From a virus, in the IMG/VR virus record IMGVR_UViG_3300024346_000637, positions 1 through 20,854 of that record: a DNA stretch of 20,854 nt. The stretch is one strand, 5' to 3'. How positions within the stretch are numbered: the stretch's first letter is position 1; every line of letters starts with the position of its first letter. Below are positions 2,333 to 6,900 of this stretch, piece by piece. Below the pieces are notes generated by a model that saw only the letters and a program-made list of their open reading frames with translations, had not been told where the DNA came from and made no database searches. A program made the translations under genes and the position numbers.

Positions 2333-2432
2333 TTTTGACCTTACTTCATTGGCCTGCTTCACAAAAAGGAGAACATCGGCAGAAGGGTGAAGAATCCTCT
2401 TTTCCCCCGCTAAGGGTAGCCGCTGTTCAAAA

Positions 2433-4641: not shown

Positions 4642-4820
4642 CAAGCATATTGATTCACAGGGTTAAAACTTTGATAATAAAAGAGCCATCTAGTTTAGAC
4701 GGCGCTGTTGCAGTGTTTTGGACACGCAAAATATTTGTGACTGACACAGACGGTCATAAAACAGAGATTACTTTGTTTGCCGACAACGAAGAATCATTAG
4801 AAATAAAGGAATTGACATGA
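4638..4820 (+). CDS. hypothetical beta-rich protein (60 aa)
   Basis: A 60-aa protein coupled by ATGA at both ends. Alternating hydrophobic residues (SILIHRVKTLIIKE, AVAVFWTRKIFVTD, TEITLFAD) suggest a small beta sheet. No membrane segment or catalytic motif is visible. It lies directly before the annealing-protein gene. Function unknown. Confidence 0.7.
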   Translation: MTSILIHRVKTLIIKEPSSLDGAVAVFWTRKIFVTDTDGHKTEITLFADNEESLEIKELT

Positions 4821-5386
4821 ACAATTTACAAGATTTAAGGAAACCATTTCCCGATCATCAAATTAGCTATTTGCCAAAAGGCGGTACAAAATTAGCATAC
4901 GTAGGCCATGCAGCTTTGACTGACCGACTGTTGGACGTTGACCCTGGCTGGACATGGGAGCCGCTGGCAATGAGTCCTCACGGCTTGCCTGTGATGGACG
5001 ATTTGGGCGGTATGTGGATACGTTTGACAGTGTGCGGTGTTACCAGGCTTGGCTACGGGCACGCTGGCAACAAGCAAGGCGGTGACGCCATCAAAGAAAT
5101 CATTGGTGATGCCCTGCGAAATGCAGCTATGCGATTTGGCGCTGCATTAGAGTTGTGGCATAAGGGCGATTTGCATCTGGATGCAGCAGACGATAGCAAT
5201 CCACTAGACATTACTGATCATTTATTGGCAATTGAGGGCAGCGGCAACAGCGAACAATTAGCAACGCTTTACAAAGATGCGTTGGCTGCTTGTGAAGGAA
5301 ACCAGGTGCTGCAAACCAAAGTTATTGCAGCAAAAAAAGCCAGAATTGACAAAGCTAAACAGGAACAAATAAATAAACAAAACTAA
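4817..5386 (+). CDS. putative Rad52/Sak-like single-strand annealing protein
   Basis: The 189-aa product has the layout of phage Rad52-like annealing proteins. YVGHAALTDRLLDVDPGWTWEPL (residues 28-50) corresponds to the first strand-helix unit. GGMWIRLTVCGVTRLGYG (64-81) forms the beta sheet. GGDAIKEIIGDALRNAAMRFG (88-108) closely resembles the Rad52 signature in which a GDALK/R helix leads to an RxFG turn. The C-terminal 60 residues are charged and helical. Such proteins coat and anneal single strands made by a partner exonuclease; that partner (6292-6900) and an SSB-like protein lie just downstream. AAGGA lies six bases before the ATG, which overlaps the upstream stop. The exact subfamily is inference. 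Confidence 0.65.
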   Translation: MNNLQDLRKPFPDHQISYLPKGGTKLAYVGHAALTDRLLDVDPGWTWEPLAMSPHGLPVMDDLGGMWIRLTVCGVTRLGYGHAGNKQGGDAIKEIIGDALRNAAMRFGAALELWHKGDLHLDAADDSNPLDITDHLLAIEGSGNSEQLATLYKDALAACEGNQVLQTKVIAAKKARIDKAKQEQINKQN

Positions 5387-5390
5387 GCGA

Positions 5391-5500
5391 GGCATGGTTC
5401 GGCTAGGCAGGGCTGGGCAAGGCGCGGCAGGGCTCGGCAAGGCGCGGTTGGGCAAGGCGCGGCCTAGCGGGGCCGGGCTAGGCAAGGCAAGGCAAGGTAA
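5391..5500 (+). repeat. GGCNN pentamer array, block 1 (22 units)
   Basis: Twenty-two consecutive 5-base units run without any insertion or deletion. Eighteen begin with exact GGC, three with GGT and one with AGC; the last two bases vary (AA, GC, TA, AG, CG and others). The period of five rules out selection as a codon repeat. All G-runs are on the + strand, the mRNA strand of this operon. The first unit starts five bases after the annealing-protein stop codon. Confidence 0.9.
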
Positions 5501-5557
5501 GCTGTTTACAGCCGATTGACTATTGACAACAGTAGTTTTTCGGGTGGCAACACCAAA
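5501..5557 (+). other. 57-bp core between the two pentamer arrays
   Basis: The pentamer register is broken here by a non-repetitive core. It begins with the inverted repeat GCTGT-TT-ACAGC (5501-5512), then a direct repeat TTGAC-TA-TTGAC (5516-5527), and ends with GGTG-GCAA-CACC (5543-5554), a short stem with a GNRA-type loop. No -10 element follows the TTGAC hexamers at the right distance, so I do not call a promoter. Confidence 0.6.
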
Positions 5558-5652
5558 GGCGCGGCGCGGCTTGGCCAGGAAAGGCGCGGCGAGGCGGGGC
5601 GTGGTTGGGCACGGCGATGCTGGGCGCGGTCGGGCAAAGCAAGGCAAGGCAT
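5558..5652 (+). repeat. GGCNN pentamer array, block 2 (19 units)
   Basis: Nineteen more phased 5-base units; fourteen start with exact GGC and the rest differ by one or two bases (GGA, GGT, TGC, AGC). The variable pair is more often G+C-rich here than at the end of block 1. The array ends in GGCAT and a run of six T, with another run of five T shortly after, then the AGGA ribosome binding site of the next gene. Confidence 0.88.
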
Positions 5653-5677
5653 TTTTTAACTTTTTACAGGACAATAT

Positions 5678-6292
5678 ATGACAACAGCAAACACAAGCGA
5701 TACAAGACTTAACATCATTAAAAGGTCAATATCAATCCGTGGCGTAACGCCGCTAATGTTCGACCGCTATGCGGGAGACAATCAAACTAAACTCGAATGG
5801 TCGCAAAAAATTTACCTCCGTCCCGGCACTTCAAACCTGTGCCTTCCGACATTAAACCTGGTTTCATTCTTCACCGCGCACAACACGAACTCCGCGCCCA
5901 AGAGGTTACGCGACAAGAGAATTTACAAAGGGATTTGCAACGCCATTTTGAGTTTCGTGCAAATAACCGGCGTTGACAATAACGCTGAAAATATTTTGAT
6001 ACAACGGGACGGTAAGCCAATTACTGTTGGCACATTTACCGACAGATTGGATGTAGAAAGCGGTTTATTTTTGCATCGTGCAGTAGCTAGGCTGGACAAA
6101 GGTATTCCCAATCCCAAAGAGCGTCCCGTACTGCCATTGCCTTGGGAATTAAATTTTGAAATGACGATCTATCCCAACAAAGAAATAAAAGAGCAGGAAA
6201 TTAAAAACTTGTTGGCAGAAGGCGGCATGGCAATTGGCCTTGGTACTTTTCGAGGAGTTTTTGGCAAGTTTGAAATTACAAGGTGGGAATAA
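5678..6292 (+). CDS. unknown 204-aa protein of the recombination cassette
   Basis: AGGA lies six bases before the ATG. The protein starts with a beta strand and the segment ISIRGVTPLMFDRY (residues 18-31), has a central beta-rich region, and ends with PLPWELNFEMTIYP (152-165) and a glycine-rich motif, GGMAIGLGTFRGVFGKFEITRW (182-203). A first-strand xxIxGxTPLM pattern plus a C-terminal GxGxxRGxFGxF loop recalls ferredoxin-like RAMP proteins, but that is a weak resemblance by eye. It lies between the annealing protein and the exonuclease and overlaps the latter (TAATG), so a role in recombination is likely from context. The codons in the first third look more G+C-rich than those in the last third, which may reflect mosaic origin. 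Confidence 0.75.
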   Translation: MTTANTSDTRLNIIKRSISIRGVTPLMFDRYAGDNQTKLEWSQKIYLRPGTSNLCLPTLNLVSFFTAHNTNSAPKRLRDKRIYKGICNAILSFVQITGVDNNAENILIQRDGKPITVGTFTDRLDVESGLFLHRAVARLDKGIPNPKERPVLPLPWELNFEMTIYPNKEIKEQEIKNLLAEGGMAIGLGTFRGVFGKFEITRWE

Positions 6293-6900
6293 TGGATCAA
6301 GGCACTGACGAATGGTTTGCCGCCAGGCTGGGCAAAGTAACAGCAAGCAGGGCAGCAGATGTAATGACCAAGAAAGGCAGCGCAGCCAGGGCTAATCTGT
6401 CTGCCCAATTGGTTCTGGAGCGCCTGACAAACACCAAAGGCGAATCGTTTAGCAGCGCAGCAATGCAATGGGGCGTAGATCAAGAGCCGTTTGCACGGGC
6501 AGCGTATGAGGCTCACAGCGGCGTTTGGGTTGACACTGTAGGTTTTGTGCAGCATCCGACAATTGAACGTGCTGGGGCGTCCCCTGATGGCTTGGTGGGG
6601 CATGATGGTCTGGTGGAAATTAAGTGCCCTAACACCGCCACCATGATTGACACGTTGTTGACGGGCAAAGTTCCTGGCAATTACGCTACGCAAATGCAAA
6701 TGCAAATGGCTTGTACTGGACGGGCCTGGTGCGATTATGCGGTGTTTGACTCTCGGATGCCTGTTAAAGCGCAGTTGTTTGTTAAGCGAGTGCAGCGTGA
6801 TCAAAAATACATTGATGATTTAAACAAAGAAATCATTGCGTTTTTGGCAGAGGTAGAAATCAGTTATCAATTTTTAATCAATTTCATTGAAAGCAAATAA
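6292..6900 (+). CDS. YqaJ/lambda Exo-family recombination exonuclease
   Basis: The 202-aa protein has the PD-(D/E)xK nuclease core of the YqaJ/lambda exonuclease family. EWFAARLGKVTASRAADVM (residues 7-25) is the usual N-terminus, GVDQEPFARAAYE (61-73) carries the conserved Glu65, SPDG has Asp99, and VEIKCP supplies Glu109 and Lys111. YATQMQMQMACTG (131-143) is the QxQ motif. Members degrade one strand of double-stranded ends and hand the other to an annealing protein, here probably that at 4817-5386. I chose the ATG at 6292 (TAATG overlap, AAGGTGGG upstream) over an in-frame GTG nine bases earlier. Confidence 0.92.
   Translation: MDQGTDEWFAARLGKVTASRAADVMTKKGSAARANLSAQLVLERLTNTKGESFSSAAMQWGVDQEPFARAAYEAHSGVWVDTVGFVQHPTIERAGASPDGLVGHDGLVEIKCPNTATMIDTLLTGKVPGNYATQMQMQMACTGRAWCDYAVFDSRMPVKAQLFVKRVQRDQKYIDDLNKEIIAFLAEVEISYQFLINFIESK

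What the first reader, a model, noticed from the sequence alone, without database searches (positions are those of the whole stretch)
5387..5677. Two phased GGCNN pentamer arrays inside a phage recombination cassette
Seen: 22 and 19 consecutive 5-base units in strict register, 32 of 41 beginning with exact GGC, with the two trailing bases free to vary, flanking a non-repetitive 57-bp core. The period of five, the lack of insertions, and the conservation of GGC while NN drifts show selection on the spaced GGC pattern and not simple slippage. All G pairs lie on the mRNA strand, and G2N3 repeated many times could in principle form two-tetrad G-quadruplexes or a phased protein-binding lattice. Context: just downstream of a Rad52-like annealing protein gene and upstream of an unknown protein and an exonuclease. 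Inference: a loading site for the annealing protein, a replication or recombination hotspot, or an RNA element. I know of no named class that matches.
Basis: partly seen in the sequence, partly recalled or inferred. Interest (0 to 1): 0.82.

Follow-up and report, generated by a model that had tools for sequence, protein, structure and literature searches.

The report
Phage VIPR guide RNAs with Cas7-like gene
The repeated GGC pattern is a pair of guide-RNA genes beside a CRISPR-like (Cas7-fold) protein gene in a phage, a new example of the recently described VIPR system that phages are thought to use to switch off rival phages.

Summary
The interpretation (loading site for the Rad52-like protein, recombination hotspot, G-quadruplex) is not supported. 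The arrays belong to the next gene, 5678-6292. In an independent protein search, 76 of 78 viral contigs encoding relatives of that gene carry GGCNN arrays beside it on the sense strand and nowhere else; 67 unrelated viral loci have none. Its relatives belong to PHROG 4652, and its predicted structure (pLDDT 93) is a Cas7/Csm3 RAMP (Z 12.7). The 57-bp core is a structured RNA with compensatory changes. This anatomy is that of VIPR (Viral Interference Programmable Repeat; PMC13142463, 2026): a Vipr RAMP protein plus vrRNAs of alternating GGY/NN, whose NN bases pair with DNA, skipping one target base each time. The prototype, phage SUSP1, is in the same family and has GGYNN arrays at the reported places. 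The window is therefore a new VIPR member, with long vrRNAs and no recognised vap gene, inside a recombination operon. No target was found for its two guides. In passing: several related VIPR loci have arrays punctuated by tRNA-minihelix-like elements, not mentioned in the preprint's main text.

The parts
5391..5500 (+). Array A, repeat tract of vrRNA 1: 22 GGY-NN units, NN = AT TC TA AG TG AA GC AG TC AA GC TG AA GC CT GG CG TA AA AA AA AA; last four probably constant
   Evidence: starts 5 nt after the stop codon at 5386
5501..5557 (+). Core: structured RNA tail of vrRNA 1 (stem GCTG/CAGC, long middle stem, GGTG-GCAA-CACC stem-loop)
   Evidence: z-score -3.3; 10 of 19 pairs show compensatory change over 9 relatives, 86.8% of cells paired against 22-53% in slid controls
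5558..5652 (+). Array B, repeat tract of vrRNA 2: 19 units, NN = GC GC TT CA AA GC GA GG GT TG AC GA TG GC CG AA AA AA AT
5653..5677 (+). T-rich short spacer and ribosome-binding site (AGGA) before the vipr start; no tail hairpin like the core is seen here
   Evidence: sequence
5678..6292 (+). vipr: 204-aa Cas7/Csm3-fold RAMP protein with glycine-rich loop GLGTFRGVFGKF; PHROG 4652
4817..5386 (+). Rad52-like single-strand annealing protein (PHROG 3290); neighbour, not part of the system
   Evidence: present in 1 of 78 vipr loci
6292..6900 (+). YqaJ-type exonuclease; neighbour, not shown to be a vap gene
   Evidence: PF09588 E 9.6e-31; present in 9 of 78 vipr loci

Best explanation
The locus is a VIPR system. 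The two GGCNN tracts are transcribed as guide RNAs (vrRNAs). Copies of the Cas7-like Vipr protein (5678-6292) polymerise along each tract, one per five bases, gripping GGY and exposing NN. The NN dinucleotides pair with DNA with one target base skipped between them, and the bound complex blocks transcription of the target gene, most likely in a competing phage or prophage. The 57-bp core is the folded 3' tail of the first vrRNA. Shown here: repeat pattern, gene association, protein family and predicted fold, RNA structure of the core. Inferred from the VIPR preprint: RNA production, 1-nt-skip DNA pairing, silencing. Unknown: the targets.
For: 76/78 vipr-encoding viral loci have sense-strand arrays next to the gene, none more than 1.2 kb away; 0/67 control loci; period 5 only. 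In the reverse direction, 85 of 120 loci found by the DNA pattern alone encode the protein, and all 69 members scanned match PHROG 4652. Predicted fold pLDDT 93, Csm3 Z 12.7, and all 50 listed entries are Cas7-family effectors; a remote member gives the same. The SUSP1 prototype vipr is PHROG 4652 (1.4e-96), matches the window-clade profile (2.9e-11), and has one upstream and three downstream GGYNN arrays, as published. NN hypervariable, GGY conserved. Guides fit codon positions 1-2 in 67% of 362 cases, against 45-52% shuffled and 30% reversed, as expected if the skipped base is the wobble base. Covarying core.
Against: No target found: four 8-unit seeds in IMG/VR gave only chance hits; none in 399 Burkholderiales genomes with up to 3 mismatches; a local all-guide search shows no excess at any skip. 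Tracts of 22 and 19 units exceed the published 9-16 unless the A-rich ends are tail. Array B lacks a tail like the core. No vap gene recognised. Transcription not tested. The true-coding control of the codon test discriminates weakly (54% for true positions 1-2, 40% for 2-3).
Confidence: 0.93

Rival explanations
1. The arrays are cis-acting mRNA leaders: the RAMP protein binds its own 5' leader to regulate its synthesis, with no targeting in trans.
For: Arrays are sense-strand, in the leader of vipr and just after stop codons; targets of the window guides not found.
Against: Simple autoregulation gives no reason for NN at near-maximal entropy or codon-like NN statistics; arrays also lie downstream of vipr in 53 of 78 loci; the SUSP1 relative is shown to act in trans (PMC13142463).
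Confidence: 0.04
2. Binding lattice or recombination site for the Rad52-like annealing protein or exonuclease.
For: Position in the recombination operon.
Against: Annealing protein in 1 of 78 and YqaJ in 9 of 78 array-bearing loci; arrays follow vipr instead.
Confidence: 0.01
3. G-quadruplex or simple-repeat slippage product.
For: GG every five bases.
Against: NN entropy 3.7-3.8 bits and no unit homogenisation; conserved gene linkage; some relatives have GGT rather than GGC.
Confidence: 0.01

Closest known systems
VIPR (Viral Interference Programmable Repeat) systems, PMC13142463, bioRxiv 2026.04.26.720920; prototype Escherichia phage SUSP1
   Same: RAMP protein of the same family (PHROG 4652); adjacent arrays of alternating GGY/NN; structured tail; phage-encoded; several arrays per locus
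   Different: GGC rather than mostly GGT; 22 and 19 units instead of 9-16; different three-stem tail; no vap1 (PHROG 5926) found; embedded between an annealing protein and a YqaJ exonuclease gene
Class 1 CRISPR-Cas Cas7 proteins (Csm3, Cmr4, type VII Cas7)
   Same: Predicted fold, Z about 12, glycine-rich loop near the C terminus
   Different: About 10-15% identity; no CRISPR repeats or other cas genes; 5-nt RNA period with fixed GGY instead of a 6-nt period with contiguous guide
PHROG 4652
   Same: Family profile matches the window protein (1.3e-6) and all relatives
   Different: Annotated only as unknown function

Membership tests
VIPR | Vipr: small RAMP protein with RRM core, G-loop and thumb | tested here: met
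   AF2 pLDDT 93, Csm3 Z 12.7; G-loop GLGTFRGVFGKF invariant at G187, G189, R192, G196 in the clade; the thumb was not examined separately
VIPR | Homology to the prototype SUSP1 Vipr | tested here: met
   SUSP1 protein hits the window-clade profile at 2.9e-11 and both match PHROG 4652; hhalign prob 95% over the C-terminal 53 columns
VIPR | Adjacent vrRNA tracts of alternating conserved GGY and hypervariable NN | tested here: met
VIPR | 9-16 repeats per vrRNA | tested here: inconclusive
   22 and 19 units; about 18 and 15 if the A-rich ends belong to the tail
VIPR | Conserved structured 3' tail | tested here: met
   For array A; array B has none of this form
VIPR | vap accessory gene | tested here: inconclusive
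   vap1/PHROG 5926 not seen; no gene is regularly linked in the close clade; vap2-6 models not available
VIPR | vrRNA transcribed and bound by Vipr | not testable with these tools
   needs RNA sequencing and pull-down
VIPR | NN pair with DNA under the 1-nt skip rule; targets in competing phages | tested here: inconclusive
   No target found; indirect codon-phase support
Class 1 CRISPR-Cas | CRISPR array and multi-gene cas locus | tested here: not met
   No other cas-like or defence gene in the proteins scanned; repeats are GGYNN, not CRISPR repeats

The most novel reading that the evidence does not exclude
The window's clade is a distinct VIPR variant without a vap gene, using long GGC-type vrRNAs with a three-stem tail, and related clades use tRNA-minihelix-like elements between vrRNAs as processing sites, an array architecture not listed in the main text of the VIPR preprint.
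Probability: 0.3. Interest if true: 0.6.

Novelty: new member of a known kind. Interest (0 to 1): 0.5.

Why it matters
It adds a clade of at least 78 viral contigs to a system known from one preprint, gives a function to PHROG 4652, and shows that a plain DNA pattern (GGCNN at period 5) finds VIPR loci without a protein query. It supplies independent, purely computational support for the GGY/NN architecture (hypervariable NN, codon-like NN statistics, covarying tail), and many new guides whose targets can be sought.

Tried and rejected
Rad52/YqaJ association: rejected by distribution. Known RNA family: no Rfam match on the arrays. Pfam, NCBIfam, PADLOC for the gene: nothing useful. Target search with window guides: IMG/VR seeds (12, 41, 3 and 11 hits, none extending), 399 Burkholderiales genomes, and 446 guides against 2.3 Mb of local loci: no convincing target; excess at skip 0 and 3 was low-complexity only. 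Search for the vipr gene itself in 399 Burkholderiales genomes: none, so the host is unproven; the tail-tip protein is 40% identical over its length to Methylophilaceae phage P19250A. GGCNN pattern in bacterial genomes: many hits in GC-rich actinobacteria; only 3 of these 120 loci encode the protein, and ten of the genomes lack it, so the pattern alone is not specific outside viruses.

Full report
Observation. Register scores of 36 and 28 compare with at most 10 in 2,000 Markov sequences of the same local composition. Only the + strand carries them.

Who owns the arrays. In these the arrays lie on the sense strand of the neighbouring genes and often begin 4-40 nt after a stop codon. tblastn of the window proteins showed that only the 'unknown' gene, 5678-6292, recurs beside them. 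An iterated profile found it in 85 of the 120 loci. The reverse search, starting from the protein, fetched 78 usable viral loci: 76 carry arrays beside the gene, 50 upstream and 53 downstream. None lies more than 1.2 kb away, and 67 viral loci drawn by unrelated patterns (576 kb) have none; periods 4, 6 and 7 give 0, 2 and 0 loci. The annealing protein and YqaJ are found in 1 and 9 of the 78, so the recombination setting is incidental.

What the gene is. It has no Pfam, NCBIfam or PADLOC match. It matches PHROG 4652 of unknown function (1.3e-6), as do all 69 members scanned, window protein included. AlphaFold2 gives pLDDT 93. Foldseek returns Csm3, Cmr4 and type VII Cas7 chains (E about 1e-5), and VIA-align gives Z 12.7 to Csm3 with only Cas7-family effectors among the 50 entries shown; a remote relative gives the same picture. 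The C-terminal GLGTFRGVFGKF looks like the RAMP glycine-rich loop.

What the arrays are. Over 142 arrays of the clade GGC carries 1.4-1.9 bits per base and NN has 3.7-3.8 of 4 bits of entropy, except in the A-rich last units. The core folds (z -3.3), and in nine relatives 10 of 19 pairs change on both sides, with 86.8% of cells paired against 22-53% when slid. It is thus a structured RNA joining two repeat tracts.

Known system. This is the anatomy of VIPR, described in a 2026 preprint (PMC13142463): a RAMP protein, Vipr, with vrRNAs of alternating GGY/NN, whose NN bases pair with double-stranded DNA leaving one target base unread, usually the codon wobble base, and repress competing phages. 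I tested the link directly. The SUSP1 protein encoded between GGYNN arrays is PHROG 4652 (1.4e-96) and hits the profile of the window's clade (2.9e-11); my array finder locates one upstream and three downstream arrays, as the preprint reports.

The code. Under the skip rule NN should look like codon positions 1-2. Of 362 guides 67% fit that phase best, against 45-52% of shuffled and 30% of letter-reversed guides; true coding strings of positions 1-2 score 54%. This is suggestive, not proof: guides within a phage are related and the classifier is weak. Direct search for targets of the two window guides failed in IMG/VR and in 399 Burkholderiales genomes.

Differences from the published systems: longer tracts (22 and 19 units; 9-16 reported), GGC dominance, a three-stem tail, no recognised vap gene (PHROG 5926, the gene after vipr in SUSP1, not seen in the window; no regularly linked gene in the clade, apart from a GIY-YIG-like nuclease judged from its sequence in a 13-locus subclade). 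I therefore call it a new member, with a possible variant status that the preprint's supplement would settle.

A side finding: in about ten related loci the arrays are separated by elements that look like a tRNA acceptor stem plus T arm (TTCGANY loop). 20 of 22 such motifs in 1.56 Mb of vipr loci lie within 60 nt of a same-strand array. ARAGORN does not call them tRNAs in the seven loci tested, Rfam matches none in the ten loci tested, and the word tRNA does not occur in the preprint's main text.

Noticed in passing
L336 4762-4810, 6218-6262, 6362-6405; L334 1651, 2984; L298 5657-6190; L319 5639; L322 5620, 5769; L099 1493-1815; L010 3784; L025 (- strand): GGYNN arrays of other VIPR loci are separated by tRNA-minihelix-like elements (acceptor-like stem plus T arm with TTCGANY loop), perhaps RNase P or RNase Z processing sites; 20 of 22 motifs in vipr loci are within 60 nt of an array.
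   Followed up: partly
L329 4430-5000 and 6025-6330 (Felixounavirus VpaE1); L404 27500-29330 (SUSP1): The arrays are GGTNN and are preceded by a repeated hairpin (ATCACTTAAGAGTCTTCTAAGAGGGTTTTTAAGTGAT), with a different hairpin following.
   Followed up: no
L336 4998-6160 (LittleE), L328 4995-6021 (Medea1), L333 4980-5609 (ODay): The vipr gene, in LittleE and Medea1 together with the next gene, sits as a cassette between tail genes, which suggests it moves as a moron-like unit; in SUSP1, VpaE1 and LESphi2 the next gene is PHROG 5926.
   Followed up: no
L298-L325 subclade, about 450 nt upstream of vipr (e.g. L301 4550-5200): Thirteen loci share a GIY-YIG-like protein (judged from its sequence) just upstream of vipr, a candidate accessory nuclease.
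   Followed up: no
window 2356-2426 (- strand): Rfam int-alpA RNA (RF02996), 44.9 bits, next to the Cro/YdaS-like repressor gene.
   Followed up: no
L254 4654-4800 and 4800-4946: Two neighbouring vrRNA tracts with almost the same NN series and identical tails, as if one guide had been duplicated and was diverging.
   Followed up: no
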